In this document: positions 17 through 28,483 of the stretch, piece by piece | How positions within the stretch are numbered: the first letter of the stretch is position 1 | Layout: every line of letters begins with the position of its first letter | From: Chrysophaeum taylorii | Taxonomy: Eukaryota > Sar > Pelagophyceae > Pelagomonadales > Pelagomonadaceae | Length of the DNA: 28,483 bases | Direction of reading: 5' to 3' | NCBI GenBank assembly: GCA_029834535.1 | Contig: JAQMWT010000442.1 | Location: forward strand, 1 to 28,483 | Made by a program: the position numbers and the translations under genes | The notes under the pieces: model-generated | The model's database searches: none | The model's input: the letters and a program-made list of their open reading frames with translations, nothing else | What the model was told of the DNA's origin: nothing

Positions 17-357
17 TTGCCTGGACCTGGTACACTTACGTTTATAGTTGGTCATATTTATAGACGACGAGACGGGCCGAAGTTCGCAACGACTTTAGGC
101 GTGGATGGAATGGCTGATGTCTCCTATATTTGTCGTGGGATGGTCGAAAAACTGAAGGATAGCATGAAATCCTTGACCGGGGCGATCTTCCAGTCGAGCG
201 CACCCTGTACGGGTCAGGATTGAACAAGACGACTATCCACAAATGGGTCGCATTGCGGATTGCGCTTGCGGACGACGGCCGTTCAGTTGTTGCTATTGTG
301 GCCGATACTAGTCATCTATTTTGCTGGGAGCGCGCGATAGGGTGTTGGGAGCCATAG
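17..357 (+). pseudogene. Retropepsin (aspartic protease) domain of the Ty3/gypsy element, frameshifted
   Basis: The first frame (17-223) has a retropepsin-like layout: a beta-strand segment, then VDGMADVSYI followed by a helix-like RGMVEKLK. The family expects Asp-Thr/Ser-Gly-Ala where this copy has Asp-Gly-Met-Ala, so the catalytic triad is not intact. The similarity continues in another frame from about 205 to the stop at 355-357, where a protease-like strand pattern (LYGSGLNKTTIHKW, then RIALADDG) follows. The frame change near 205 fits the loss of one base. The assignment rests on pattern and on position just before the pol spacer of a gypsy element. There is no start codon issue to settle because the real start lies in gag, off the left edge. 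Confidence 0.6.
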
Positions 358-1217
358 TGGACTACCCGCGAAATCGCATTGCGTTTCTCCGCACACAAGT
401 CGTTTATGGGCGCAAGAAGTTAAAGGTGCAGGATCGACGAGTCGTTCTCCGATTTTGACGTTCAGAACAACTTATGACGAGCGCAATCCGTGGTAGTTCA
501 GGTTTATGGGCAACAGCACCATGCGATGCAAAAAGCCTGAGCACGCACCGAGTCTACGCTCGCTTGTGCAAGATTGAAGACCTCCAGCGTCCACCGCCGA
601 AACGAGCGGGAGCTTCGACGACTTGGGAGTCCCAGTTACGCCTTCTCAAAGTTCGAACAGCGATGCCTATGAAGTGATAGCCTATGCTGCGCGCACGATG
701 AAGGTCGAGCCTGGGCGCACCTACCTCGTTGCTACGTCCTTCTGGGTACGAGCAACGCAACTCGAGGTGAATGTGTTCTTCTCCTGAGGATCATGATAAG
801 TTCGCAGCTCGAGTGGCGATATCCTCTACCCAGGATGCGCCGACCGTGATTACTCAAGGTGAAGTCCTTGCTTTTGGCGATATTGTTCGTTTTGATGACG
901 AGCTGAATGATGAGACGGTCGACGATTTAACGAAGGATGGTGAAGCCGAATCTAACAAGGCTAACCTATCATTCACTGTTTCGGTCGCAAGCCATCTGAC
1001 TCAAGGCGATGCGGCTCCCGAACCGATGCTTTTGAGCTCGGTGCAGAAGGCGTCTCCTTCTGCCGATCAGAAGAAGAATTCTCGTCGAGAATCGCTCGGT
1101 GACGACGATTTCGACCGACGAACTGACGAGGAGGAAAAGAAATGCCGAGAAGTTACAGAAGGCGAGATTCGCCGAAGGTTTGAAATTGGGTGCCGATCAC
1201 GTATCGCAAGGTTGTGA
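358..1217 (+). pseudogene. Protease-methyltransferase spacer region of the Ty3/gypsy polyprotein
   Basis: Coding-like text continues in several frames. One block lies at about 360-461. Another at about 590-787 ends with a strand-rich stretch (VEPGRTYLVATSFWV). A third at 771-1217 has ISSTQDAPTVITQGEVLAFG. This 'EPG...LVA...V...G.V.A' arrangement resembles the beta-rich linker found between protease and RT in many Ty3/gypsy polyproteins. The part after about 890 is acidic and low in complexity (DDELNDETVDDL and a later DEEEKK stretch), as expected of a flexible linker into the methyltransferase. Changes of frame near 358, 461-590 and 785 and the shift near 1195 break continuity. No catalytic role is visible. 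Confidence 0.5.
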
Positions 1218-2173
1218 TGCTCTTTAGCGGCGCCGGAGGAAGTACTTTAGGACTGCAACGAGCGAACGAGTTGTGCGGGATGTCGTTTCGAGTCGTCCTT
1301 GCTCTTGACTCTTCAACAGCTGCCAACAAGGTTCATCAGAAGAATTTTCCAAAGATACCTGTGGTTCAGCACACGCTCTGCGGACGATATGGCTCGACCC
1401 TCCGATTGATCAAGGCGTATTTGCCTGAAGCGGAATGGTCATCGTCGATGTGTATAGCGTCTCCACCCTGCGTTCTTTCAGCACTCTGCAACTTGACATC
1501 CAGAGATGTTGGCAGGGGTGTTACGGCCACTAACTGGACGATGAAGCTGTGCAAAATGGCTGGCTTCATGATGTGGCTGATCGAACAGGAGGCGTCCATT
1601 ATTTCTTATATAGCGCGCTTACACCCTTACGTGTACGTCGTCAATTTTCATGATATCACGCCCACTCTGATGAGCTCTCGCGTGCGATTGTTGGTTTCCA
1701 GTCACCCACTGCACTTGCAAGAGGCTCCGAAGACATGTGTGAACATGCAACAAAAATTTGCTGCAGCTTTAGGTTATGCTCATGAACGCCACCTGCTCCA
1801 GCTGAATAATCTTGGCTCGTCCCGAGAAGCAACAGATACGGCTTACACCGTTACGCGAGTTCCTCTTCGTTTGGGACCGCATCGCTCGGACACTCAGCCT
1901 TTGACTCTCGAGATGACGGCCGAGTTGCTCACGATGCCGGTGGACCATGATTGGGCTAGCTTGTCTAAGACAGATTCGTTCAAACATTTAGCGTCTGTCG
2001 TCCCTCCAGACACTCTTGCGATTTTAGCAGTCGATCTGCACAACTCCGTGACCAGAGGTTTCCGCCAAAGTGGCGAAGTCCTGCCGACCGCGTTGAGCCC
2101 GACAGATCGATCCTTGCAGCAGTATTTGCGAATTTCCGACACCCCCTTCGTCACGTACAGATTCCGCTGTTAA
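1190..2173 (+). CDS. C5-cytosine DNA methyltransferase domain inside the Ty3/gypsy pol region
   Basis: This 327-residue frame shows the motifs of C5-cytosine methyltransferases in order. Motif I is FSGAGGSTLGL (12-22, SAM binding). Motif II is VVLALD followed by the typical NFP (35-54). Motif IV is SPPC (91-94), with the catalytic Cys94 encoded at 1469-1471; the usual following Gln is Val. WLIEQ (129-133) may replace motif VI ENV and keeps the Glu. SSRVRLL (162-168) stands for motif VIII. TAYTVT (218-222) and a C-terminal LASVVPP (267-273) correspond to motifs IX-X, where IGNAVPP is usual. The family transfers methyl from SAM to cytosine in DNA. The frame opens without a convincing ATG, so it is a polyprotein segment, and shifts separate it from both neighbours. 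Several motif residues are altered, so activity of this copy is uncertain. Confidence 0.85.
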   Translation: MPITYRKVVMLFSGAGGSTLGLQRANELCGMSFRVVLALDSSTAANKVHQKNFPKIPVVQHTLCGRYGSTLRLIKAYLPEAEWSSSMCIASPPCVLSALCNLTSRDVGRGVTATNWTMKLCKMAGFMMWLIEQEASIISYIARLHPYVYVVNFHDITPTLMSSRVRLLVSSHPLHLQEAPKTCVNMQQKFAAALGYAHERHLLQLNNLGSSREATDTAYTVTRVPLRLGPHRSDTQPLTLEMTAELLTMPVDHDWASLSKTDSFKHLASVVPPDTLAILAVDLHNSVTRGFRQSGEVLPTALSPTDRSLQQYLRISDTPFVTYRFRC

Positions 2174-2719
2174 ATACGCGTACTCGTGTCGTTAAGTGGG
2201 TGTCAAAAGATGATCTCCAGGATCCCACGAAATGGGAACCGCCAGAAGTCCCTATGCTTCCGCTTCCAACAGATGCGCCGGGGACGGCTCATGCTTTTCT
2301 GCTGCCCCCCGACAATCAAAAGTGGACGTTCCGCCGGATCCTGAACCTGAACAGGAGCCGAAGTAAGGAGCGAGCCGAATGTGCGCGTCAAAGGTGAAAA
2401 GATCAATAAGAGCCACCCTGAGGTGAGGTTCAAATACGAAGAAAAGTTCGATGTGCCATGGAAGGATGCGCCGCGCGACGCGGACGGTGTACCGTTACCG
2501 CAGACTCCGGAGCACGTCAAGGACAATGATGCGATGAAAGTCGTAACTCCGACGAAGGAAGAAGTCGAAAAGGCTGTTCGAGAACTGGGAATTCCCGACA
2601 ACCCGCATCTGGATGAGGATGCGAAGATGATGTTGAGCCACTGCGTGCAATACGCGTGGGCCTTTTTTGATCCGATTATGAGACCCGTGGACTCGCCACC
2701 GGTTTCTCTACGATTTTAA
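2174..2719 (+). pseudogene. Methyltransferase-RT linker and RT N-terminal part, two frames, in-frame TAA
   Basis: After the methyltransferase the coding text resumes one frame lower (about 2161-2397, with DDLQDPTKWEPPEVP) and then moves to the frame of RT at about 2381. The 2381-2719 block (KYEEKFDVPWKDAP and later TKEEVEKAVRELGIP) is charged and helix-rich. It runs in phase with RT but ends at a TAA at 2717-2719, only a few codons before the recognisable RT text (AVDLRQLN). The section where RT normally has its fingers and the 'W..P.V.V.KKDG' segment is missing or unrecognisable. I read this as a linker plus a damaged RT N-terminus. Confidence 0.55.
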
Positions 2720-2731
2720 GACGCAAACCCA

Positions 2732-3925
2732 TTGCGTGCTGCAGTTGACTTGCGTCAGCTCAATGATCAGCTGGTCAATGACAGTTGGCCGAATATTCGT
2801 CAAGATGATGCTTTGGCTTTTCTTGCCATGCGCCGTTGGCGGACGTGCATTGATATTCGATGGGGTTATCATAACCTACGTTTGGACGCCGCCGCTCAGG
2901 ACGCCGTTACGATGGTTAGTCCACATGGAGCCCATAGTTTCTTGCGCTTGCCTCTGGGAGTAAAAACAGCAGGAGCTCGCTTCTGTAAGCAGATGGCTAG
3001 CGATTTGTCCACATGGATGTATAAGGACTTGGTCGCGTTTGTCGACGATATTGTGATGGGATCGGATGAACTCCACCGACATTTACAAGTCTTGATTCAA
3101 GTACTGTGCCATTTAGCGCAGCGAGGATATAGTGGACGAACTTCGAAGTTCCACCTCCTCAAAGATGAAATCGAGTTTTTGGGACACATTTCGACTCCGG
3201 AAGGCTTGAAGCCGAATCCCAAGACGTTAGAAGCGTTGCAGCAGATGCCGATTCCCGGTACGTTGCCGAACACGTCCCCGAAGACCCAGATTCGATCTTT
3301 CATCGGCATGAGCAACTATTGCCGCCGATATGTGAAGAATTATTCGAAGATTGTGGAGCCGCTGAGGCGATTGTGTCTTGAAGGCGTTAAGTTTGAGTGG
3401 ACGCCTGAGTGCCAAAAGGCATGGGACACGATCATCGAAGCTTTGGTGGACTCTCGCGAAGTTTATCATCCTGACTACGATCTTCCTTTTCAGATCCGCT
3501 CGGATGCTTCCAAGGATGGTCTGGGCGCGTATCTTTTTCAGCTCGTGGAAGTCAAGGACGAAACCGGCAAGGTGACACGAGAGGAACGAGTAATTGAGTA
3601 TTGGAGCCGAGCTGTGCCGAAAGAGATGCGGAACTATGAGCCTCGCCGGCTAGAGCTACTGGCAGTTATTCTTTCTCTTGAGCACTTCCGCTCTTATATC
3701 GAAGGTCACAAGACGATCCTTGAAACGGATCATCGCAACTTGACGTTTTTACGAAAGGCGAAGCAATCGTCTGGGCAGTTGGCTCGATGGGCGATGCGGC
3801 TCGCCAATTTTGATCCTGAATTGGGTTACAAACCAGGAAAGTCGCCGGGAATGAGTATCCCTGACATCTCCCTCGCAATCCTATCGATCATGTCATCGAG
3901 ACGGGTGAGTTTGGTGAACCCTTGA
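2732..3925 (+). CDS. Ty3/gypsy reverse transcriptase and RNase H
   Basis: The enzyme copies element RNA into DNA (RT) and removes the RNA strand (RNase H). RT motifs are CIDIRWGYHNL (39-49, motif A, Asp41), LPLGVKTAGARFCK (73-86, motif B) and FVDDIV (103-108, catalytic Asp105-Asp106). The thumb/connection region (SFIGMSNYCRRYVKNYS, 189-205) is typical of Ty3/gypsy. RNase H carboxylates are visible as Asp258 (RSDAS), Glu308 (RRLELLAV) and Asp333 (LETDHRNL). At residue about 377, just after the PGK segment, the frame breaks: the conserved 'PD.LSRNP' ending continues one frame lower from about 3865. This fits a one-base deletion near 3862-3864. The last residues of the printed frame are therefore not authentic. 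An in-frame TAA at 2717 lies just upstream. Confidence 0.9.
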   Translation: MRAAVDLRQLNDQLVNDSWPNIRQDDALAFLAMRRWRTCIDIRWGYHNLRLDAAAQDAVTMVSPHGAHSFLRLPLGVKTAGARFCKQMASDLSTWMYKDLVAFVDDIVMGSDELHRHLQVLIQVLCHLAQRGYSGRTSKFHLLKDEIEFLGHISTPEGLKPNPKTLEALQQMPIPGTLPNTSPKTQIRSFIGMSNYCRRYVKNYSKIVEPLRRLCLEGVKFEWTPECQKAWDTIIEALVDSREVYHPDYDLPFQIRSDASKDGLGAYLFQLVEVKDETGKVTREERVIEYWSRAVPKEMRNYEPRRLELLAVILSLEHFRSYIEGHKTILETDHRNLTFLRKAKQSSGQLARWAMRLANFDPELGYKPGKSPGMSIPDISLAILSIMSSRRVSLVNP

Positions 3926-4337
3926 ACCACGCGTATCTAGTGTGCCAAGAACTTCCTCGCCCTGTCGATGATGAAGGAGTACCTTTACCTGGGTGCTATG
4001 TCATTCTGTCGTTTGTTACGACTGAGTTACCTGTGGAGGAAGAAGAAGAGGATCTCGATGATCCGATACAATTGGTCACGTCTCATGCTACGAGACAACG
4101 TCAGAAGCAACGTCTGCAGACCCGACCTAGTATTTTCCGTGATGTCGATGATTACCAAGAGTACATCGACAAGAACGCGGATAATTTGACTTTGGAGGAG
4201 ATAGCCAAAGAGCAGATCACTGATGCTGCTTGCGAGGACATTCGTTATCGCATGGCTCAGGGCCATTCTCTTCGTCGGCACGGAGCCAATTATCGCTATC
4301 AAGTGGTGAAAGGAGTTCTCTACCGTGCCGCACCTGA
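3865..4337 (+). pseudogene. RNase H end and integrase N-terminal linker of the Ty3/gypsy element
   Basis: The frame entered after the shift near 3862 starts with HLPRNPID, the conserved tail after RNase H in Ty3/gypsy. It continues through an acidic stretch (VEEEEEDLDDP) and then DDYQEYIDKNADNL and VVKGVLYR. The last element is the short strand that normally precedes the integrase zinc finger. A TGA at 4348-4350 ends this frame, but the text has already moved to the integrase frame at about 4338, again fitting the loss of one base. An apparent TTG-initiated ORF at 3922 in this frame is not a separate gene. It belongs to the polyprotein. Confidence 0.7.
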
Positions 4338-5906
4338 CTTGCACCCGTGATAGTCGCACCCCGAACTTTACGGACGCGCATCATCCGATTGTACCATGAC
4401 ACACCTCTCAATGGTGGTCACATGGGTCGTCAAAGTACAGTGCAGTCGATACTTGAACGTTTTTGGTGGCCCCACATGTCTAATGAGGTGGGTGCTTATA
4501 TTGCTGGTCGCATAGTGTGCAAGAAAGCTCGTACGCCTGAACCAAAGAGACCAGGTCTTCTTCAGCAACCGGTGTATGATGGTGATTGCGCCGTGCTTTG
4601 TATGGATTTGTTCGGACCTTTGCCTAGTGCTGGTCCCGAGACATATCTGATCATCTTTTTTGATCCATTTTCTCATTTCTTGATTCTTGACGTACTACAC
4701 CATAAGACTGCTGAGTCAATCCTCGAGTCTTTTGTCGCGAGTATATTACTCAAAGGTTATCTACCTCAGAGGATTCGTACCGACAATGGGAAAGAGTTCG
4801 TCAGCAAATTGATGGAAGAGTTTTGTCATCTCTTCAATGTTCGGTGTAGTACCACGATTCCGTATCATGCTCAGGCTAATCCTGCGGAAAGGGTCAGCCG
4901 CTTTATCAAGGCTTTCCTTCGAGCGTGTCTTCAAAACCGCAAGATCACAGACTGGCCCGAATTCGCGGAGTACATTGCTTTTTGCTACAATCGTAAGTTT
5001 ATTCCGGGAACTCAGATCTCACCTTTCATGCTTCGTCTCAACCGGCAGCCTCTATTGCCCACAGATTATACGATCATGGATCTTGATGTCCGCCGCCTGC
5101 CGAAAACTCGCTCCGATGTTGTGGCAGAGACTCGCGAGAGGTTGATATTCTATACCGCTACGGTGAACGAAGCTCGCGAGAAGGATCTTCGTAAACAACG
5201 TCTCGCTTACAATGCGGGCCATGTCGATGTGGAGTATGAAGAAGGTTCACATGTTCTGCTCTACATCCCTTTTCTTCAGAACAAGCTTCGACCGGAATGG
5301 CGCGGTCCATTCGTTATTTTGGAGCGCTTGTCTCCAGTCACTTACAGGGTTGAGTCTCTTGATTCTCCTCCTGAACGCCGTTGTGTTCATGTCAGTCAGA
5401 TCACCCCTGTGATGGTTTCTCCAGTGGTCGATCGAGCTGTGCCCAAACCCAAGGAGACATTTCGGGATGATTACAAGCACGGTAAGTTCGTTGTCTTTCG
5501 GATTCCAGATAACAAACTGTCCGACTGGCGAAAGAAGATTTACGTAGCTGAAGTTTATGAGCCCTATGATTTTGTGAATGATCGACTCGCTCTGCATTTT
5601 TATGCTGATCTTGGTCCCCATGACAAGGTTGCTTATTACAAGCCCACCTCACATCTCTATACTCGCAAGCTTAAGCCGGAATACAAGGACGTGGACGGTC
5701 GCAGTTTCACCGACAAGACCAACGTCAACAACAGTACCACTCCTTGTGTCACCGACTTCGCCCCGCATGAGATCGATGTGTTGATTCCCAAGTTCACTTT
5801 GCGTAGTGGACGCGTTCCCGAACCTGTCGTTGAACGTGTCTACAAGAAGATTCGTTCCCGAGATGCTCATTCAGCCAAGGCTCGTGATTCTCACCGGACT
5901 CGCTGA
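4338..5906 (+). CDS. Ty3/gypsy integrase with GPF/SH3-like and extra C-terminal domain
   Basis: Integrase inserts element cDNA into host DNA. Numbering from the GTG at 4347, the N-terminal zinc finger keeps His17, His25 and Cys58, but its first Cys is replaced (AGRIVCKK), so zinc binding is doubtful. The catalytic core has Asp87 (CMDLFGP), Asp146 (RTDNGKEF) and Glu181 (ANPAERVSRF). The Asp146-Glu181 spacing is one residue shorter than the usual D-D35-E. A C-terminal SH3-like segment follows (LRPEWRGPFVIL). After residue about 375 comes a further strand-rich domain (GKFVVFRIPDNKLSDWR, then LALHFYADLG, YTRKLKPEYKD) of the kind that follows integrase in some Ty3/gypsy lineages. I do not recognise a canonical chromodomain. 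The frame is open for 519 codons, the best preserved part of the element. Confidence 0.88.
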   Translation, partial: LAPVIVAPRTLRTRIIRLYHDTPLNGGHMGRQSTVQSILERFWWPHMSNEVGAYIAGRIVCKKARTPEPKRPGLLQQPVYDGDCAVLCMDLFGPLPSAGPETYLIIFFDPFSHFLILDVLHHKTAESILESFVASILLKGYLPQRIRTDNGKEFVSKLMEEFCHLFNVRCSTTIPYHAQANPAERVSRFIKAFLRACLQNRKITDWPEFAEYIAFCYNRKFIPGTQISPFMLRLNRQPLLPTDYTIMDLDVRRLPKTRSDVVAETRERLIFYTATVNEAREKDLRKQRLAYNAGHVDVEYEEGSHVLLYIPFLQNKLRPEWRGPFVILERLSPVTYRVESLDSPPERRCVHVSQITPVMVSPVVDRAVPKPKETFRDDYKHGKFVVFRIPDNKLSDWRKKIYVAEVYEPYDFVNDRLALHFYADLGPHDKVAYYKPTSHLYTRKLKPEYKDVDGRSFTDKTNVNNSTTPCVTDFAPHEIDVLIPKFTLRSGRVPEPVVERVYKKIRSRDAHSAKARDSHRTR

Positions 5907-6485
5907 GGGCAGCTCGTATTCTCACCAGAGGAGTCTTGTGGCGGCAACTCCTGACCGCTAAGGCTTACCCTCCCTTCTCGCGGCTTGATGCCCGTTCAAA
6001 AGGACGCCTTTTCCTACTTTCCTAGTGACATCATACCTCTCCCTCGTGAGAAGCGTATCTTGCAGCATTCTCGTAGCATTCTTGCTATCATATACCATCT
6101 CTCCATCTTGTTGAGAGGCTTGGTGAGCGCGAGCAAGGTGTGTGGCGAGCATATCCGACCCCGAGTCCGAGTTTTCCTCGTTCAGTGAGGTCTAGGACGA
6201 GTCGGTGAGTACCCCCTTTGTCACCCGGGGGTCGGGAGTGGTTTTTCTGTGCCGCCGCCATAATCCCTGTGGACCTGCTTGTGCGGAGGCGTCATCTCCG
6301 CTAACAGAACCAGAGGTTTTGGCTGGTTTGGTGGTTGGTTTGGTTGCATTGCTCAGGTTGATCCGCGTTCGCCTGGTTGGTTGGGTTAGATTTTCTAGGG
6401 TCAAAAAATTTTGGTTAGTTAGATTTTCTGGGATCGCAGTTTTTCGGGACGTTGGAACGGCCACCTAGTCGGAACGGCTCGGCTA
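5907..6485 (+). other. Non-coding stretch: likely 3' LTR of the Ty3/gypsy element and promoter of the next gene
   Basis: No supported gene is present. The first half is moderately AT-rich and should contain the polypurine tract and 3' LTR. A possible LTR runs from TGTGGCGGCAAC (about 5938) to a CA near 6184, but the matching 5' LTR is outside the window, so the ends cannot be confirmed. From 6318 to 6430 the strand is rich in G and T, with repeated TTGGTTGG/GGTTTGG words and two copies of TTAGATTTTCT (about 6387 and 6421). The remainder up to 6485 would serve as upstream region of the GDPD-like gene. Confidence 0.4.
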
Positions 6486-15655: not shown

Positions 15656-16732
15656 ATGAAGCGCAAGCTTGAGACGGTCGCCAGGAGCGCGCTCCACGTG
15701 CTTGTGGGCATGGACGCCGTGGTGTTGCTGAATTGTGTCGACGAGGTGACCCAGGGCCGCGAGGCGCAACGCGGCGCAGTGCACGCCATGATCGAGAACG
15801 ACGAGTGGTTGTTGGGGATTCTCGACGGCGTTTCCAACGATGCGCTCGCCGCATTGTCGAACAGGCACGCAAGCCGCCACGAACACCTCGTCGAAATCTC
15901 CAAACTCTTTGACAAGGTCGGCGTTCGGCGGCACATCCGCTCTTTGCTCGAGATCATGATCCCGGGCGTCGAGTACGACCCCGTTATCGACGACAACATC
16001 CAGTTGCCGAGTGGCGTGCGGCAATCAAGAAACACCAAGGGCGTCATCGAAGCATTCAAGGTCTGAGAGACATCAACATCTAGCTGACAACGCGTTGCGC
16101 AGGAGTTTGTCGAGCTCGGCGCGATCAACTGGGTCGCGTGGATGGTCCAAAAGAACGGCACTTTTTTGCGGAGTCGCGCGTGCAAGATTGCAGCTCGCGA
16201 AGGTACTCTTGAGGTGCTCAAATGGGCTCGTGCCAACGAGTGCCCCTGGGACGAAGACGTGTGCGAGGAGGCAGCCCGCGGCGGTCATCTGGATGTCCTC
16301 AAATGGGCTCGCGTCAACGGGTGCCCGTGGAACGCGGCGGTCTGCACCGCCGCGGCTCGAGGTGGTCACATCGAGGTCCTCAAATGGGCAAGGGCCAACG
16401 AGTGTCCGTGGAATGAATGGACGTTTGCCGACGCCGCCTTTTACGGCCACCTCAACGTCCTCACCTGGGCGCGCGCCCACGGCTGCCCGTGGAACCAAGA
16501 AACTTGCTCTCAGGCCGCGAGGGCAGGCCACCTCGACGTCCTGAAATGGGCCCGTGCAAACGGCTGTCCCTGGGACAGCGGAACCTGCTCCTGGGCAGCA
16601 TTCGGCGGACATCTCGACGTGCTAAAATGGGCACGCGCCCACGGGTGCCCGTGGTTCGACTCGATTTGTGCAGATTCGGACCACGCTGATGTTCGCGAGT
16701 GGGTGCGAGCACATTGTGATCACCACCATTGA
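15656..16732 (+). CDS. Ankyrin-repeat protein of the 'KWAR..GCPW' type, two exons
   Basis: Exon 1 (15656-16060) and exon 2 (16103-16732) join in phase 0 across a 42-nt intron to give 344 residues. The N-terminal about 145 residues are helical (ALHVLVGMDAVVLLNCVDEV, then LLEIMIPGVEYDP) and look like the lead-in found in such proteins. From residue about 160 there are six or so repeats with a 27-residue period, each of the form VLKWAR(A/V)NGCPW followed by a short variable part and AARGGHLD. This Trp/Cys-rich ankyrin subtype is abundant in stramenopiles and giant viruses and mediates protein binding; the partner is unknown. The end carries DHHH. ATG 15656 is preceded by AT-rich leader. No catalytic domain or membrane segment is seen. 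Confidence 0.85.
16061..16102 (+). other. 42-nt spliceosomal intron in the ankyrin gene
   Basis: The boundaries are AAG|GTCTGA at the 5' end and TTGCGCAG|GAG at the 3' end. A CTGAC word (16084-16088) matches the branch-point consensus CTRAY about 15 nt before the AG. Unspliced, the frame stops at a TGA inside the intron (16064-16066). Splicing joins the two open frames in phase 0 and makes continuous protein text (IEAFK then EFVELGAIN). It is the only intron I can support in this window. Confidence 0.85.
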
Positions 16733-17012
16733 GACTTGTTGGTTCGACCTACACCTACGCGAGTACGAGGTTAATTGTGAACATAAAACAGCGCTTACGG
16801 ATAGTGTGGCCTCGGTCACATGGTCGAGTCAAGGCGATGCCGACGGGGGTGGCATCATAATTTCTAGGCTGAGGGCAAATCGTCATTTCTTTTTGTTGAT
16901 TATGTGGAAACTTTTAAAACAAAGCCTTATGACGGGGATGTTCCCGGGATGACTTCTCAAAGAGTGGTAGTGATAGGGCGGGGGACTGGTCGGAAATTAA
17001 TTGCCTTTTACG
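16733..17012. other. Intergenic stretch without recognisable gene
   Basis: Moderately AT-rich sequence follows the ankyrin stop. I see no coding pattern, RNA gene or repeat except that its last bases (TTTTACG, 17006-17012) match the bases just after the following repeat. Confidence 0.5.
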
Positions 17013-17211
17013 GGGCGAAGACGGAAGGTTATCGACGAGTTGGTTGTCAGTCGCATCGCGGTCTCCTCGTCGCATGGCGACAAGCTTGATGGTCACTCTC
17101 CGCCGACCGACCTTTCGGCGCTCCTCGTCTACAGGCCCGTGATTCCGGACTGGCTCCTGTCGGTCCGGCCTGGCTCCCATGCTCGGGAGAGGTCTGAAGT
17201 TAGTTAGTTAG
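17013..17211 (+). repeat. SINE-like dispersed repeat, copy 1
   Basis: About 200 bp that recurs almost unchanged at 24111-24312. It starts near GGGCGAAGACGGAAGG, ends in TCTGAAG and then a (TTAG)n tail. The heptamer TTTTACG occurs immediately before (17006-17012) and after (17212-17218), so it may be a target-site duplication. Direct orientation, short size, simple-repeat tail and flanking duplication fit a non-LTR-mobilised non-autonomous element. I do not see clear Pol III A and B boxes. Both strands stay open for 60-80 codons, but nothing resembles a known protein. Confidence 0.75.
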
Positions 17212-17218
17212 TTTTACG

Positions 17219-22332: not shown

Positions 22333-24110
22333 GATGACGTGAGACAACGAATCTTGGGAAGGGTTTCGAGAACGCGGATCCGCCGAGTCCGTTGCGGATC
22401 AGAGTGCAGGGCGAGGAGCTTCGAGCTGAATGCTTGCGCAAAGAGGTTGCGGGTTGAACAGCAGAAGACGGTCGAGGAGGAGTACTATGGGGCGATGATG
22501 ATCGCGACTCTACTTATGACAGAACAATTCGTTGAGCTTCGAGAGGGCGATCGACAATGCGAAGCGGAAGGCGGCGAGTGCCCTGACAGGCGGCTCAGAC
22601 GGGCATGCGCAGAGCTATATATAGTCGACAAAGGCGCGCCCCTTTGCCAAACGAGAGAGCAAAGTGCGTCTCGCAGATACCTGGCATGCTCCCGATGTAC
22701 GAAGAGTATCGCGTTGGTCCTGGGCGGCGAGACATCTTCGAATAAGGTGGCCGTGGAGCACTTGGTGGAGTTGTGTGAGTGTCGGTAATTGTTGGCAACT
22801 AGGAGCGGCTGATTGCGCGCTGGACGGATTCACGCGCAGCATAACGCACGCCGCCGACGTTCTGCTGCTTTTTCGCGCGAGCGCGCGTCTATGTCCTTGG
22901 TGCATCACTTTTTGTCTGACTGACAAGAGCGGACGTGCAAAACACGTGCGTTCGAGCGTCTTCCTTTTCGGGTAGAATGTGCGATTTTCCTGGCGGCGTG
23001 CTCGACGATGTCGCAGAAAATCACGCCAACGGCTCGTCGTCGCGGGACGGAACGCGACGTACCGCGTGTGATCTCAACAAGTTTTGTGCGTCGTAGGCGA
23101 TGACAGTTTTCGGTAAAATTAGAGATACATACGGCTCGAGACTTTCGGATCTCCTGTTTGCCGCCGGCTCGTGGTCGCGCGCGAGAGTGTGACGTCGCAA
23201 GCGCCGCCGCTCGCAGCCAGCCCTAATAATGACTAGAGCGTAACCGAGCACCCGAAATTGATCATACCCTGTGGCGGACGCGGCCGGCTGCCTCTTTCCT
23301 TTCAGGCGACGACGAACACGGTCTCGGCGTTGCTTACTCAAAGTAAGGTATGTCGTTGTTGACACCGGTGCAATGGCAACCACGCGGGGCGCCCCGAGGT
23401 CTTCGCCTGCTGCGACTTTTAGACGATGATCTAACAAGGTGGACAGATTTGACCCTCTCCGGGTACATGGTAGAGACTGCGTGCAGTCTTAGGCGTGTAC
23501 AGACCATTCCGCTTGTCACATGCTACTACACAAGGTAGGGATTTAAGCCCTAACTCCTTAAGGACATTAGGTCCCATAGAAGCGTTTACACTGACAACGA
23601 GGAACGAAGCCTCTGTTAATTAAACAGAACACCCCGTACCTGACGGTACGCACCTGGAGGCCTACTCCATGTTGGAAAAGAGCTTCAGACTGGGTTCTTC
23701 ACAGTCATGAAAATATATAATTGCGGAAGGGTAAGGAAGGACAGGAGGAACGAGGGCAAGCCGTATTACGGAGAGAAAACCCTCGTGTAGAGATAGGTGT
23801 GAAATGTTCCAGTGTCGCACACATAATTAATAGTGTAACTCTCTGGACCCCCTCAACGCGTGAAAACGGTTTTTGCATTTCGGACGTTCTTGAAGCGGAG
23901 CTTGTGCAATATACATGAGAACAGTGAACAGTGAAACAAACAACAACAGAACAGGACAAATTAATTGTGATGTCGAGCGTGTTGTGATGTTGCGCAAAGA
24001 AGCTGTATCGGTATCCACAACATTAGATGTGTGGTCCAATTCACCTATTCGCCTCCCGGGCGGGCCGGTTGGCAGCCGGAACGTTCGCAGTGGGACGGGG
24101 TATGGCCGGG
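22333..24110. other. Long stretch without a supported gene
   Basis: About 1.8 kb between the MFS start and the second SINE-like repeat. A palindromic CTATATATAG (about 22616-22625) could be the MFS TATA box, about 285 bp from its ATG. A perfect 6-bp hairpin, CGTACC-TGAC-GGTACG, lies at about 23635-23650. The frame containing VVDTGA near 23355 is short and broken. Composition shifts to AT-rich from about 23500, suggesting the start of retroelement-derived sequence belonging to the copia element on the right, but I found no LTR boundary. Confidence 0.4.
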
Positions 24111-24312
24111 GGGCGAATACGGAAGGGTATCGACGAGTTGGTTGTCAGTCACATCGCGGTCTCCTCGTCGCATGGCGACAAGCTTGATGGTCACTCTCCG
24201 CCGACCGACCTTTCGGCGCTCCTCGTCTACAGGCCCGTGATTCCGGGCTGGCTCCTGTCGGTCCGGCCTGGCTCCCATGCTCGGGAGAGGTCTGAAGTTA
24301 GTTAGTTAGTTA
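24111..24312 (+). repeat. SINE-like dispersed repeat, copy 2
   Basis: Direct repeat of 17013-17211 with only a few substitutions over about 200 bp (for example GTTATCG against GGTATCG, and GGACTGG against GGGCTGG). It has the same (TTAG)n tail. The 5' flank (24061-24110) is GC-rich and does not match copy 1. No flanking duplication is evident for this copy. It sits immediately beyond the 3' side of the minus-strand copia element. Confidence 0.75.
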
Positions 24313-24844: not shown

Positions 24845-26224
24845 CTATTCTTTTAATTGGTGTAAGGATTCAGCCATATTGTCGTTAGCTTTATCTGGCG
24901 TGGGCTCAGCGGGTGGATTATCGATCGGCGCTGGTGACTTATCTTCGGAAGGGGTATTATTAGAGAAAGTGTCAATGATATGGGATGGGTAGCCAACTTG
25001 GATTAACACGCTTTTAAATGCTAGTTGTTGATTAGGTGGAAGTTGGTGAAAGTAGTGTAGCATTGGCGGTACCGTCTCGGAAGAAGTTGCGTCAAGTTGA
25101 TGAGAAACATCGTTAACAAAGCGTTCGATGAGCACGTTAAGTAACTCCTCAGGATTGGTAACTACGCAGGTTTTATATTCCACAGATTGTAACAAAGACC
25201 AAGCTGCTACAAGAATCTCAAGATTTACACTCGAAATGAAGGGCAGCTGCAGCAAGAGCATGGGGTTAGCGTCAGGGTTGACGAGGATTTTAGAAGCATC
25301 AATGTTACGGGATGTTGCGGTCTGCATGATTGCCTCTTTGAGCAGCTTGTTAATAGCAATGGACTTTCCAAGACGGAGGATTATGGCTCTTATGTGGGCA
25401 GCTGGATCATTATAACAAGAGAGTTGGAAGGGCTGCTGATTATTGCGCATTAACGCTATCCCATGATTCGACAAGCTACACATCACACAAATCAACAGAA
25501 AGAAAGGGCGCGGTACATCGAAGCAGTGCGATGCATGTTGCTCAGACGCGAGATGATCCTCAATAATTCGTCGAATCCTGTCAGTTTTAAGCTCATCTTC
25601 AGTACAGATGATGAGCACGAGGGGTGTGCCTGGCATCTCAGTTTTATTATAGCACTCTGTACAAGCCACATGTACTTTGACAACCCCTTTAATGGGTGGA
25701 AAGCGGTGAAAACGTATACCTTCATTAGGAGATATAGCGGGGGCATTCCGAATGCGCTTTGCTTTGACGCACAGCAATGAACTAAGATATTGGATGTCGT
25801 CCACGAAGTCTGTCTGTTGTGCTTCGGTAAGCAGCTGCTGCACAGACTTAAGCCAACACTGAGGATTCTTATGCTGAGGGATGAGGAAGTTTGGCGGGTA
25901 TGCACCAAGGGCGGATGTGTTCCCTGACATCATCGCAAGTGCGTCAAATTTGCAATGTTTAAGCAGGAAATACACAGACTTTGATGGTTGCGATTTAGAC
26001 GGTTGTTGGACAGTTGCCTTGGGTACCTTAGGCGTAACGGGCGTAGATTGATGTCCTTGAGCCACCGACAAATAGGTTTGATGTTTCCGATTAGGGGAAC
26101 TAGTCGGTGCAGCGCTTAGAGTTAGAGCATTAAAAGGCGGGGATATTGACGGTGCACCACCACGACCACGGTTCAGGGTAGAATGGCGCCGGCTCGCAGC
26201 ATCTTTGTTTTTTGTGGGATTCAT
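24845..26224 (-). CDS. Extra 3' ORF of the copia element: zinc-finger-like protein of unknown function
   Basis: A 459-residue frame downstream of RNase H on the same strand. The N-terminal about 80 residues are basic and rich in Ser/Pro/Thr/Gln (RRHSTLNRGRGG) and look disordered. A zinc-finger-like pattern follows: Cys188-x2-Cys191 with His224-x5-His230 and His233-Cys234 (VACTECYN ... DHLASEQHASHC), reminiscent of BED or C2H2 fingers. The next about 200 residues are mostly helical with many Leu. The C-terminus is Pro/Asp-rich, then enters a coiled coil that the TAG at 24845-24847 interrupts. It has no CCHC knuckle, so it is not a plain Gag, and no membrane segment, so it is not a plain Env. 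The start is the ATG at 26224; a GTG lies 14 codons upstream. No family is recognised. Confidence 0.65.
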   Translation of the reverse strand: MNPTKNKDAASRRHSTLNRGRGGAPSISPPFNALTLSAAPTSSPNRKHQTYLSVAQGHQSTPVTPKVPKATVQQPSKSQPSKSVYFLLKHCKFDALAMMSGNTSALGAYPPNFLIPQHKNPQCWLKSVQQLLTEAQQTDFVDDIQYLSSLLCVKAKRIRNAPAISPNEGIRFHRFPPIKGVVKVHVACTECYNKTEMPGTPLVLIICTEDELKTDRIRRIIEDHLASEQHASHCFDVPRPFFLLICVMCSLSNHGIALMRNNQQPFQLSCYNDPAAHIRAIILRLGKSIAINKLLKEAIMQTATSRNIDASKILVNPDANPMLLLQLPFISSVNLEILVAAWSLLQSVEYKTCVVTNPEELLNVLIERFVNDVSHQLDATSSETVPPMLHYFHQLPPNQQLAFKSVLIQVGYPSHIIDTFSNNTPSEDKSPAPIDNPPAEPTPDKANDNMAESLHQLKE

Positions 26225-26340
26225 CGTAAAAGGAGTATCCACATCGCATCTTTCATTGCATTTCACATTTTAGCGAGCCAGTATTCCTTTACATAGCAGG
26301 GCTAGTTTAAAGTCATTTCGGACATAATGAAGGGTAAGGA

Positions 26341-26604
26341 TTAACCATCTTGTTGAGCTATGGGTTGTTGTAAGCCAAGTAACGTGCGAAGTCTGCTGAA
26401 GAGCGGAGCTCCAAAGGGTTTAGTAAATCCATCGGCGATATTTTGGGTACCAGAAACATGATGTAGACGTATGCGTTTTAACTGTACATAGTCGCGAATA
26501 CGGAACCAACGTGTGCTAATAGCTTTGGCCTTAGTCGCACTATCGGGGTTATTGGAAAGATGAATACGACAAGTCCGATGGGAGGGGATTTTCGTGAGCA
26601 TCAT
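26341..26604 (-). pseudogene. Copia RNase H C-terminal segment
   Basis: An 87-codon frame with the end of copia-type RNase H: SHRTCRIHLSNNPDS, ISTRWFRIRDYVQLKRIRLHHVSGTQNIADGFTKP in outline, where the conserved 'H...I..ADi.TK' text keeps His and Asp (HVSGTQNIADGFTK). The preceding part of the domain is in another frame; the two join near 26590. The ORF ends with LLGLQQPIAQQDG and a stop, a natural pol end, 117 nt before the ATG of the extra ORF. Confidence 0.8.
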
Positions 26605-27487
26605 AATCTAGTAGCAAGTCTTTCCCTGAAGGTTGACGGAGATAGAAGTGAGGATTTATAGCGAATGCCATTTCTGTTAACAATTTGCGTAACCAGACCA
26701 CATCATCGGCACACATATTAAGGGCGATAAGTTCACTTTCATGCGTAGAAGTAGCTGTAATAGGCTGCAACTTAGACTTCCAAGTGATGAGAGAACCAAA
26801 CAAAAAGATAGCGTAACCGGTTGTAGATCTGCGGTCTTGTTCATAGGAGGGTGCATTATCGGCATCGACGAACGCGACCAGCGGATCAAAATTACGTGAA
26901 TTAACTTGTTCTTTAGTGTAATCCAACATGGTGGCCATGTCAGTACGATTACCGATAAGAAGTCGAAGATGGCCCACTAGAGCGGAAGAACGAGAGTAGT
27001 ACCAGAGGCGAAGATTGCGATTTTCGGGCTTGCGCAAGTAGCGGAGCGTTCCTGTTAGTACTCGAACATGTAGAAATGCTGGATTGTGCATTCCTCGAGA
27101 GCAACGACTAAGATCTTGTGATAGATCGGGGCGACAGGCCAATTGGACAAACGTGAGCTTGCCGAGTAGAGTAGAGTAGGTGTGAAGGATGAACTTTTCC
27201 ATATCAGAAGATGGCTCTCCAGTTTTATACGTTGCTGATGGTGGCATCGGTGTGGAAGTGGGACGTAACTGCATTAAAATGGGGTACTCTTCGAACAATG
27301 CATCAAGTTTAGCCTGACAGTCCAGTGATATAGAACCATCAGTTGTACGCGTTATGCGCATGCCTAGGAGAGTATGGACTTCCTCGAAGGTGTCGACTGA
27401 GTATTCCTTTTCAGGGCTTGCTGGAACTCCCGACGTAGAGTTTCCGAAGTGCAAGTAATGACGACGTCGTCTACTGAGAGCGTGCAA
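26549..27487 (-). CDS. Copia RT C-terminal part and RNase H
   Basis: A 312-codon frame. From residue about 28 it reads EYSVDTFEEVHTLLGMRITRT, the segment after the RT active site, and then STLLGKLTFVQLACRPDLSQ, the typical copia 'Y....G.L.Y....RPDI...V' connection. RNase H begins at VAFVDADNAPSYEQDRRSTTGY (Asp catalytic), LITWKSKLQPITATSTHESELIAL (Glu catalytic) and VVWLRKLL. The first about 25 residues are out of frame: on the neighbouring frame the same DNA reads SVDDVVITC, the catalytic YVDD-type box of RT (about 27477-27450), continuing into TLRREFQQALK. So two single-base shifts flank the catalytic motif. The last residues after DAHENPLPS are also out of frame. Confidence 0.82.
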   Translation of the reverse strand: MHALSRRRRHYLHFGNSTSGVPASPEKEYSVDTFEEVHTLLGMRITRTTDGSISLDCQAKLDALFEEYPILMQLRPTSTPMPPSATYKTGEPSSDMEKFILHTYSTLLGKLTFVQLACRPDLSQDLSRCSRGMHNPAFLHVRVLTGTLRYLRKPENRNLRLWYYSRSSALVGHLRLLIGNRTDMATMLDYTKEQVNSRNFDPLVAFVDADNAPSYEQDRRSTTGYAIFLFGSLITWKSKLQPITATSTHESELIALNMCADDVVWLRKLLTEMAFAINPHFYLRQPSGKDLLLDYDAHENPLPSDLSYSSFQ

Positions 27488-27488
27488 A

Positions 27489-28163
27489 TTAAAATGTAGC
27501 GTCAGCTTGGACTTTAGCGTATATGCATGTATCTGTTCGAAATCGTGTATAGCCTAATGAATCAAAGAAGCCGTTTATGGTTTGATTCCAAAGGGCAGGG
27601 CTCTGACGTGTCCATAAGAGATTTAAGTAGCTTTGGGAGACGACGGCCTTGTATTTAGTATCTTCGGATCGAGAAGGTAAATGCGTTGGTAGTTTGACAT
27701 AGACATGAGAATCGATGGGAGCTTGAACAAAAGCGTTAGGGACGTCGACATGGTAGACGGGAAGTCGCAGATGAGCTGCTAGCGCCAGAACACAACGGAT
27801 GCCAGTAAGCTGTGCCATAGGGCTGAATGTGTTGAAAAAATCGGTGCCCAGAGAGGCTAAGAATCCTCGTAGGACCAGGCGTGCTTTATGTTTAATGTAC
27901 TGACCAGCAGCGTTGGTTTTTATACGTAGGACGAGACGGGTGTCAATAGGCTTTGAGTTGACCATTGGCAGCGCTAGTTTAAAGCAGCCAAACTTAACAA
28001 TATCAAAAATCTCCTTGGAGATGGCAGCAACGTAAGCTGTGCGATCAGCGTCTGAGACGAGGCAGAACGGACTTTCATCATCAATTTTGATGGGCTTGAA
28101 TCTTGTATTCGCCCGAACCAACCGTGCTGGGGTCATGGTCGTCGTCAGATGGTAATTGCGCAA
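27489..28163 (-). CDS. Copia reverse transcriptase N-terminal part
   Basis: A 224-codon frame with RVT_2-type text: AAISKEIFDIVKFGCFKL, PIDTRLVLRIKTNAAGQYIKHKARLVLRGF in outline, FFNTFSPMAQLTGIRCVLALAAHLRLPVYHVDV and NAFVQAPIDSHVYVKLP. This covers the fingers and palm up to motif A (the Asp of HVDV). Further on, SYLNLLWTRQSPALWNQ stands for the usual 'SLYGLKQ..R.W' and TDTCIYAK for 'D.C.Y'. Fingers Lys and Arg (KHKARLVLRGF) are intact. The stop at 27489 lies just before the active-site box, which is in another frame. The nearest ATG is ten codons in (28136), but the true start is in gag-pol, off the right edge. Confidence 0.85.
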   Translation of the reverse strand: MRNYHLTTTMTPARLVRANTRFKPIKIDDESPFCLVSDADRTAYVAAISKEIFDIVKFGCFKLALPMVNSKPIDTRLVLRIKTNAAGQYIKHKARLVLRGFLASLGTDFFNTFSPMAQLTGIRCVLALAAHLRLPVYHVDVPNAFVQAPIDSHVYVKLPTHLPSRSEDTKYKAVVSQSYLNLLWTRQSPALWNQTINGFFDSLGYTRFRTDTCIYAKVQADATF

Positions 28164-28483
28164 ACGACATTATCGTGCAGATGAGCGTGATCGGGATCTT
28201 CGACGGTTGAACAACAACTAGTAGAGGAGCATCACCAAGGTGGGCCTCAATGTAATCGATTGCACGGTGATATAGTCTTCGATGGCGGAGAGATGAGGCT
28301 CGAGGCACCATATAATCGTCATTATGATCCAAAATGGAGTGGGCGTGAACAAAGCAGAAACATATTGAGCGGGAGGAACTTTAAAAAGCAAACAGGCCGT
28401 GAGCATGTTCAGAAATTAAAAAAAAACGACAAAAAACAAAAAAGGAGAACACACGGCACCACCCAGGGACAAAAACGGGGGGG
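28164..28483 (-). other. Upstream part of the copia element up to the window edge
   Basis: The region before RT should encode the integrase-RT linker. One minus-strand frame (28332-28081) contains DHNDDYMVPRASSLRHRR and LPSDDDHDPSTVGSGEYK and runs into the RT frame with a shift near 28150, so it may be linker text. No integrase motif is visible. The last bases are a run of A-rich then G-rich sequence ending in GGGGGGG at the window end. Confidence 0.4.

What the first reader, a model, noticed from the sequence alone, without database searches (positions are those of the whole stretch)
1190..2173. A cytosine-C5 methyltransferase embedded in a Ty3/gypsy polyprotein between protease and RT
Motifs I, II, IV (catalytic Cys at 1469-1471), VIII and X are readable, and the domain lies in the same strand and order as retropepsin, RT, RNase H and integrase. 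Retrotransposons carrying their own DNA methyltransferase have been described in charophyte (Ty3/gypsy) and dinoflagellate (copia) genomes. The neighbouring host genes here look stramenopile-like rather than charophyte or dinoflagellate, so this may be an independent capture. The proposed role, self-methylation of element copies to escape or exploit host silencing, is inference.
Basis: partly seen in the sequence, partly recalled or inferred. Interest (0 to 1): 0.92.

Follow-up and report, generated by a model that had tools for sequence, protein, structure and literature searches.

The report
Retrotransposon with its own DNA methyltransferase
In the genome of an unnamed photosynthetic alga, two unrelated families of copy-and-paste jumping genes each carry an enzyme of the kind that puts methyl marks on DNA, an unusual case that would let one test whether jumping genes mark their own copies.

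Summary
Window 1187-2170 encodes a C5-cytosine-methyltransferase-like domain (PF00145; catalytic Cys codon 1469-1471) in a broken Ty3/gypsy copy. It is no one-off insertion: at least 167 loci in this genome hold the domain. Two natural copies read gag, protease-like region, MTase, RT, RNase H and integrase as one frame of 3,063 and 3,067 codons; one has LTRs identical over 336 bp. Protease-to-RT spacing is kept in 43 of 46 linked pairs, and MTase dN/dS is far below 1.

Otherwise a DNMT5 and a DNMT2 were found; 6 of 38 PF00145 matches stayed unassigned.

DNMT-bearing retrotransposons are known (charophyte gypsy, dinoflagellate DIRS and LINE). Different here: neither domain groups clearly with DNMT3, word-based searches of 5.8 billion proteins found no relative, and two LTR superfamilies carry one in a single genome. 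Most likely the domain is packaged with RT and methylates the element's own nucleic acid. Activity, substrate and origin are not shown; a CpG footprint was sought and not seen.

The parts
29..330 (+). protease-like region of the gypsy copy (DGMAD motif at 104-118), frame broken
   Evidence: aligned by tblastn to C5b, motif; not recognised by Pfam
1187..2170 (+). C5-cytosine-methyltransferase-like domain, 328 codons open
   Evidence: PF00145 E 8.4e-6; 21 of 21 copies match PF00145; 122 places scored
1223..1240 (+). motif I, FSGAGG
   Evidence: alignment
1460..1471 (+). motif IV, SPPC; catalytic Cys codon 1469-1471
   Evidence: Cys kept in 21 of 21 aligned copies
1577..1591 (+). LIEQE in the place of motif VI (ENV)
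   Evidence: Glu kept in 20 of 21, EQE in 19 of 21
1676..1693 (+). motif VIII, SRVRLL
   Evidence: both Arg kept in 21 of 21
1982..2008 (+). motif X-like, KHLASVVPP
   Evidence: by eye
2351..2719 (+). frame between MTase and RT, aligned to the C5b polyprotein
   Evidence: no Pfam family
2720..3925 (+). reverse transcriptase and RNase H
   Evidence: RVT_1 1.2e-12, RT_RNaseH 1.1e-27
3865..4350 (+). frame between RNase H and integrase, aligned to the C5b polyprotein
4338..5906 (+). integrase: H2C2 zinc finger, rve core, p58 C-terminal domain
5937..6256 (+). 3' LTR, matched part
   Evidence: 94.5% identical to the 3' LTR region of copy C686

Best explanation
The window holds a decayed copy of a high-copy Ty3/gypsy LTR retrotransposon whose polyprotein carries a C5-cytosine-methyltransferase domain between the protease-like region and RT. 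Shown: the domain is a recurrent, selected part of a recently mobile family. Inferred: it is translated within gag-pol, released with RT and integrase, packaged in the particle, and methylates the element's own nucleic acid, most likely the cDNA before or at integration. The host has a DNMT5, an enzyme described elsewhere as unlocked by hemimethylated DNA, so a mark set once by the element could then be kept by the host.
For: At least 167 distinct loci in two subfamilies. Single frames of 3,063 and 3,067 codons holding all domains. LTRs with 0 of 336 differences in C5b, and 5-bp target duplications in C477 and C679. Protease-to-RT spacing 1,547-1,570 nt in 43 of 46 linked pairs. MTase dN/dS 0.026-0.065 between subfamilies over 30 pairs, 0.13-0.37 within subfamily B over 10 pairs, against 0.62 for gag in the one pair compared. 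Catalytic Cys in 21 of 21 copies. A second superfamily in the same genome carries a different C5-MTase before its integrase, with dN/dS 0.12 and 0.10 in two pairs. A retrotransposon DNMT of the DIRS type was shown to methylate CG in yeast (PMC5890265, section 10).
Against: No activity, expression or methylation data. PF00145 scores only motifs I-II; motif VI is EQE. Both AlphaFold2 models failed (mean pLDDT 31.6 and 32.7). No CpG depletion in the elements and no excess of transitions specific to CpG. The weak likeness to DNMT2 would fit an RNA substrate as well. In the yeast test of the 2018 paper the gypsy-borne and LINE-borne DNMTs showed no activity, which its authors call inconclusive. One copy (C119) lost the domain, and 64 of 138 RT loci had no listed domain upstream, of which only 9 could be checked. 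dS between subfamilies is saturated.
Confidence: 0.6

Rival explanations
1. The domain is an RNA methyltransferase of DNMT2 type: it methylates the primer tRNA or the element's RNA, to stabilise it or tune priming, and does not act on DNA.
For: The only C5-MTase chains matched by the gypsy profile in the PDB are DNMT2; DNMT2 is the best match outside the family for 4 of 4 gypsy sequences in the panel; the tree joins gypsy with DNMT2 at 88/100, not starred; no CpG footprint.
Against: Scores are about 15 bits; the tree has long branches and rejects no alternative tested; the copia MTase leans to M.HhaI instead, so this would not explain both elements.
Confidence: 0.2
2. The domain has lost catalysis and is kept for nucleic-acid or SAM binding, or as a structural part of the polyprotein.
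For: Motif VI reads EQE instead of ENV in 19 of 21 copies; Pfam scores only motifs I-II; no methylation footprint.
Against: Cys of motif IV and both Arg of motif VIII are kept in 21 of 21 and the motif VI Glu in 20 of 21 copies.
Confidence: 0.14
3. A host gene fragment was inserted once into a dead element and was copied along passively.
For: The window copy taken alone is broken in several places.
Against: Many copies in two subfamilies with dN/dS far below 1, intact single frames and identical LTRs; the host DNMTs found, DNMT5 and DNMT2, are not close to it.
Confidence: 0.03

Closest known systems
KnitGypsy-Dnmt3 of the charophyte Klebsormidium nitens (de Mendoza et al. 2018, PMC5890265, section 9 read)
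   Same: A gypsy-type element with a C5-DNMT inside the Pol frame, several copies, purifying selection on the DNMT.
   Different: There the domain is a DNMT3 and the repeats are arranged as in DIRS; here the best weak matches are DNMT2, the LTRs are ordinary, and a copia element in the same genome carries another DNMT.
SymbioDIRS-Dnmt3 and SymbioLINE-Dnmt of Symbiodinium (same paper, section 6 read)
   Same: High-copy retrotransposons that carry their own DNMT; the LINE type is an orphan DNMT.
   Different: DIRS uses a tyrosine recombinase and LINE has no LTRs; here both elements are LTR retrotransposons with an rve-type integrase (in the copia element matched only below the Pfam cut-off).
DNMT2 family (tRNA C38 methyltransferases)
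   Same: Best match outside the family for the gypsy domain, about 15 bits.
   Different: Very low similarity; the C-terminal half was not matched in the PDB profile search.
DAM- or DCM-bearing retrotransposons as reviewed by Morozov et al. 2019 (PMC6338049, passages seen)
   Same: Accessory methyltransferase in a retrotransposon polyprotein; the text names stramenopiles among hosts of DAM- and DCM-encoding Ty3/gypsy and DIRS elements.
   Different: DAM is an adenine MTase of another family; the passages seen describe no stramenopile gypsy or copia C5-MTase in detail.

Membership tests
Ty3/gypsy LTR retrotransposon | pol order RT-RNase H-integrase with gypsy-type Pfam domains | tested here: met
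   RVT_1, RT_RNaseH, H2C2, rve in this order in the window and in C5b
Ty3/gypsy LTR retrotransposon | LTRs with TG..CA ends and short target duplications | tested here: met
   LTRs TGTGGCG..CGCCACA; 5-bp duplications in 2 (C477, C679) of 4 copies examined, not in C5a and C5b
Ty3/gypsy LTR retrotransposon | aspartic protease with D[S/T]G | tested here: not met
   motif reads DGM; no Pfam protease match
C5-cytosine methyltransferase (PF00145) | profile match over the curated cut-off | tested here: met
   window 25.9 bits and isolated C5b domain 26 bits, cut-off 22; C5b inside a long polyprotein piece 19.5 bits
C5-cytosine methyltransferase (PF00145) | catalytic Cys of motif IV, Glu of motif VI, Arg of motif VIII | tested here: met
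   21, 20 and 21 of 21 aligned copies; ENV reads EQE in 19 of 21
C5-cytosine methyltransferase (PF00145) | class I MTase fold | tested here: inconclusive
   AlphaFold2 model useless, pLDDT 31.6
DNMT3 (as in KnitGypsy-Dnmt3) | groups with DNMT3 | tested here: inconclusive
   no profile score with DNMT3A (-2.5 bits); held together with DNMT3A p-AU 0.089; one DNMT3 sequence only
DNMT2 | groups with DNMT2 with support | tested here: inconclusive
   88/100, not starred, branch of 3.08 changes per column
KnitGypsy-Dnmt3 | DIRS-like arrangement of repeats | tested here: not met
   ordinary direct LTRs in C5a, C5b, C477, C679
KnitGypsy-Dnmt3 | purifying selection on the DNMT across copies | tested here: met
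   dN/dS 0.026-0.065 between subfamilies, 0.13-0.37 within B
active self-methylating retrotransposon | methyltransferase activity on its own DNA | not testable with these tools
   no methylation data held; no CpG footprint seen

The most novel reading that the evidence does not exclude
In this alga the only de novo C5-cytosine methyltransferases are carried by retrotransposons: two LTR superfamilies each took up a different, non-DNMT3 enzyme between protease and the next pol domain, set the marks on their own cDNA, and the host's DNMT5 maintains them, so that the host methylome is seeded by its transposons.
Probability: 0.15. Interest if true: 0.92.

Novelty: new variant of a known kind. Interest (0 to 1): 0.72.

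Why it matters
How genomes whose only DNA methyltransferase found is a DNMT5 get their first methyl marks is an open question. A genome with one DNMT5, one DNMT2 and hundreds of retrotransposon-borne MTases makes it testable whether transposons write the marks themselves. That two unrelated LTR superfamilies carry an MTase at the like place in the polyprotein argues for a shared advantage over an accident.

Tried and rejected
One-off capture into a dead element: rejected by the copy data. Relatives elsewhere: none at E 1e-3 for the window domain and none at E 10 for the C5b and copia domains in 5.8 billion proteins; none in viral contigs or prokaryote genomes. These searches need short exact words, so distant relatives could be missed. 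AlphaFold2 of both domains gave useless models, so no fold search was run. Profile comparison of the gypsy and copia domains found no similarity, and the tree does not reject one origin (p-AU 0.30). CpG decay as a methylation footprint: not seen. A sister family without the domain: 64 of 138 RT loci had no listed domain upstream. Of these, 9 could be checked by protease-RT spacing: 8 keep a domain-length stretch (1,440-1,570 nt) and C119 lost it. The other 55 are unexamined, and the capped lists cannot tell loss from a broken or unscored domain. Naming the host: not achieved; a paper search for the contig count gave nothing fitting.

Rows left out: copies with a stop in the domain (L023, L027) were dropped; the comparison between subfamilies used 3 of 5 B copies and 10 of 32 A entries, among them one locus entered twice (C10 and L005) and an allele-like pair (L005, L006). 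The CpG count used 28 distinct A copies.

Full report
What is there. The window is a whole contig (C442, 28,483 bases) of a 70.8-Mb assembly of 697 contigs. Its first 6.3 kb are a Ty3/gypsy copy, cut at its 5' side by the contig end and broken into several frames. The frame at 1187-2170 (328 codons) matches PF00145 at 25.9 bits, E 8.4e-6. The motifs stand in the canonical order, with the catalytic Cys codon at 1469-1471. RT-RNase H and integrase follow and a 3' LTR starts at 5937.

Copies. A search of the own genome with the window domain scored 122 of 1,023 candidates, every listed one at E below 1e-168. A search with the domain of copy C5b scored 122 of 1,046. Together they give 167 distinct loci. 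This is a lower bound, although some contigs look allelic (C10 and C297). Two subfamilies are evident: A, mostly above 85% identical to the window domain, and B, 77-81% identical to it and mostly above 90% identical to C5b; a few broken copies were not assigned.

Intact elements. Copies C5a and C5b (subfamily B) each hold one frame, 3,063 and 3,067 codons from stop to stop. In two pieces of the C5b frame Pfam finds the DNMT (19.5 bits, under its cut-off there), RVT_1, two RNase H models, H2C2 and rve, all in the second piece; the first 907 residues match no family over a cut-off. The LTRs begin TGTGGCG and end CGCCACA. They differ at 0 of 336 aligned sites in C5b, at 0 of 336 with one indel column in C477, at 2 of 340 in C679 and at 5 of 340 in C5a, one of these beyond the LTR's end. 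C477 and C679 have 5-bp target duplications; C5a and C5b have none. Two bases after the 5' LTR comes a stretch starting TGG, like a primer site for a tRNA; the tRNA was not sought. So the family moved recently.

A recurrent part. An RT search listed 138 loci (of 1,110 candidates) and a search with the 440 residues before the MTase listed 99 rows, 96 of them used. 46 pairs lie on one strand within reach. 43 keep a protease-RT spacing of 1,547-1,570 nt, which has room for MTase and linkers; one has 1,440, one 1,923 and one (C119) 529, a loss of the domain. 74 of 138 RT loci have a listed MTase upstream; 64 have none. Of these 64, 9 could be checked by spacing: 8 keep the stretch and C119 does not. 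For the other 55 the capped lists cannot tell a lost domain from a broken or unscored one, so a group of copies without the domain is not excluded.

Selection. Between subfamilies the MTase has mean dN 0.115 and dS 2.46 (saturated), ratio 0.026-0.065 over 30 pairs; RT has 0.019-0.020 over 3 pairs; the protease-like region 0.058-0.107 over 4 pairs with a usable estimate. Within B the MTase has 0.13-0.37 over 10 pairs, RT 0.04 and 0.08, integrase 0.05-0.11, gag 0.62 in one pair. Of 21 aligned stop-free copies the catalytic Cys and both motif VIII Arg are kept in 21 and the motif VI Glu in 20; motif VI reads EQE instead of ENV in 19.

A second element. A PF00145 search of the own genome scored 123 of 474 candidates and gave 38 matches at E 1e-6 or better. 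One (C634, L049) is a DNMT2: best PDB match 1g55 at 3.9e-39. One (C621, L050) is a DNMT5: PDB 7r76 at 3e-143, an entry whose molecule is named Rad8 and which I recall as Cryptococcus Dnmt5. Of the other 36, 29 overlap loci of a copia element found, one more is such an element by alignment, and 6 were not assigned. In its copy L053 (C96) this copia element has a gag frame and a pol frame of 1,952 codons with a DGGA protease-like motif, the MTase (TLPCQ and VENV), rve (17 bits, under the cut-off) and RVT_2. A stop codon separates RT from RNase H in this copy, and its LTRs were not identified. The MTase search gave 117 match rows, about 110 loci when split pieces are joined. dN/dS is 0.12 and 0.10 for the two pairs compared. 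None of the 38 matches is a gypsy MTase; Pfam sees that domain only weakly.

Relationship. Profile comparison shows no similarity between the gypsy and copia MTases; the gypsy profile against the native DNMT2 gives E 0.0026 at 11% probability. The gypsy profile's only C5-MTase matches in the PDB are three DNMT2 chains at E 0.08-0.8, beside three unrelated chains; the copia profile's are M.HhaI chains and one other C5-MTase at E 0.08-0.44. In a panel of 15 sequences the 4 gypsy sequences score best outside their family with DNMT2 (about 15 bits) and the 2 copia ones with M.HhaI (about 12 bits). The tree puts gypsy with DNMT2 at 88/100, not starred. Holding gypsy with DNMT3A is not rejected (p-AU 0.089), nor with DNMT5 (0.139), nor with copia (0.30); both TE branches are about 3 changes per column and the program warns of long branches. 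Origins are therefore open. No relative was found in 5.8 billion proteins, viral contigs or prokaryote genomes.

Host. A gene beside L049 is a chlorophyll a/b-binding protein, so the host is photosynthetic. The Phaeodactylum paper (PMC9998398, passages) lists DNMT5a in diatoms, bolidomonads, pelagophytes, dictyochophytes, haptophytes, a green alga, a euglenid and fungi. The host could not be named. Searches with human DNMT3A and DNMT1 found only the DNMT5 at E 0.18 and nothing; these searches are six-frame and without introns, so intron-rich or divergent genes could be missed.

How it may work. Inferred: the MTase is made within the polyprotein, freed by the protease, packaged with RT, and acts on the cDNA in the particle or before integration. 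DNMT5 is described as locked until it binds hemimethylated DNA (PMC9998398 passage), so a mark set by the element could be maintained. What the element gains (escape from a host system that attacks unmethylated DNA, or self-limitation) is open. Against lasting CpG methylation: CpG o/e is 1.0-1.3 in the elements and 1.3-1.5 in the host stretches examined, and at CpG both transitions and transversions are raised (0.025 and 0.011, against 0.018 and 0.004 elsewhere), which is not the pattern of deamination. The lean to DNMT2 leaves an RNA substrate possible.

What is known. de Mendoza et al. 2018 (PMC5890265; abstract and sections 6, 9, 10, 11 read) described DNMT3 in a Klebsormidium gypsy element, DNMT3 in Symbiodinium DIRS elements and an orphan DNMT in Symbiodinium LINEs. 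They showed CG methylation in yeast for the DIRS type; the gypsy and LINE types gave none, which they call inconclusive. A 2025 survey (PMC12344493; passages and section 5 read) writes of DNMT3 in 'LTR Copia and DIRS' and of orphan DNMTs in dinoflagellate LINEs. Morozov et al. 2019 (PMC6338049; passages) names stramenopiles among hosts of DAM- and DCM-encoding gypsy or DIRS elements. The Ectocarpus TE paper (PMC12477816; passages) describes a different MTase in a Sola DNA transposon. Seven paper searches listed no report of this pair of elements; most subscription journals are not held. I therefore call it a new variant of a known kind.

Noticed in passing
L053 (C96:61000-70000); L051, L052; loci: A Ty1/copia element in the same genome carries its own, very different C5-MTase between protease and integrase.
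   Followed up: yes
window 104-118; L053 pol residue 80: The protease motif reads DGM in the gypsy element and DGGA in the copia element instead of D[S/T]G; both have Gly after the Asp.
   Followed up: no
C5:520000-554000 (L031-L034): Two intact copies lie about 14 kb apart; the 5 bp before the 5' LTR of C5a (AGGAG) equal the 5 bp after the 3' LTR of C5b, and neither copy has its own target duplication, as after an exchange between them.
   Followed up: partly
window 24845-28169, minus strand: A second, DNMT-unrelated copia RT (RVT_2 7.6e-26), 37% identical to the RT of L053, followed by a 474-codon frame that matches no Pfam family.
   Followed up: partly
window 17012-17213 and 24110-24311: A 202-bp direct repeat, 98% identical, 7,098 bp apart; possibly LTRs or another repeat.
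   Followed up: no
RT loci: Frames of 1,231-1,272 codons around RT recur in many copies, five of exactly 1,233, which suggests a shared stop between MTase and RT in part of subfamily B (for example C331, MTase frame 518, RT frame 1,233).
   Followed up: no
window 16177-16662: Tandem 81-bp units encoding ankyrin-type repeats, a protein type I recall as common in some stramenopiles.
   Followed up: no
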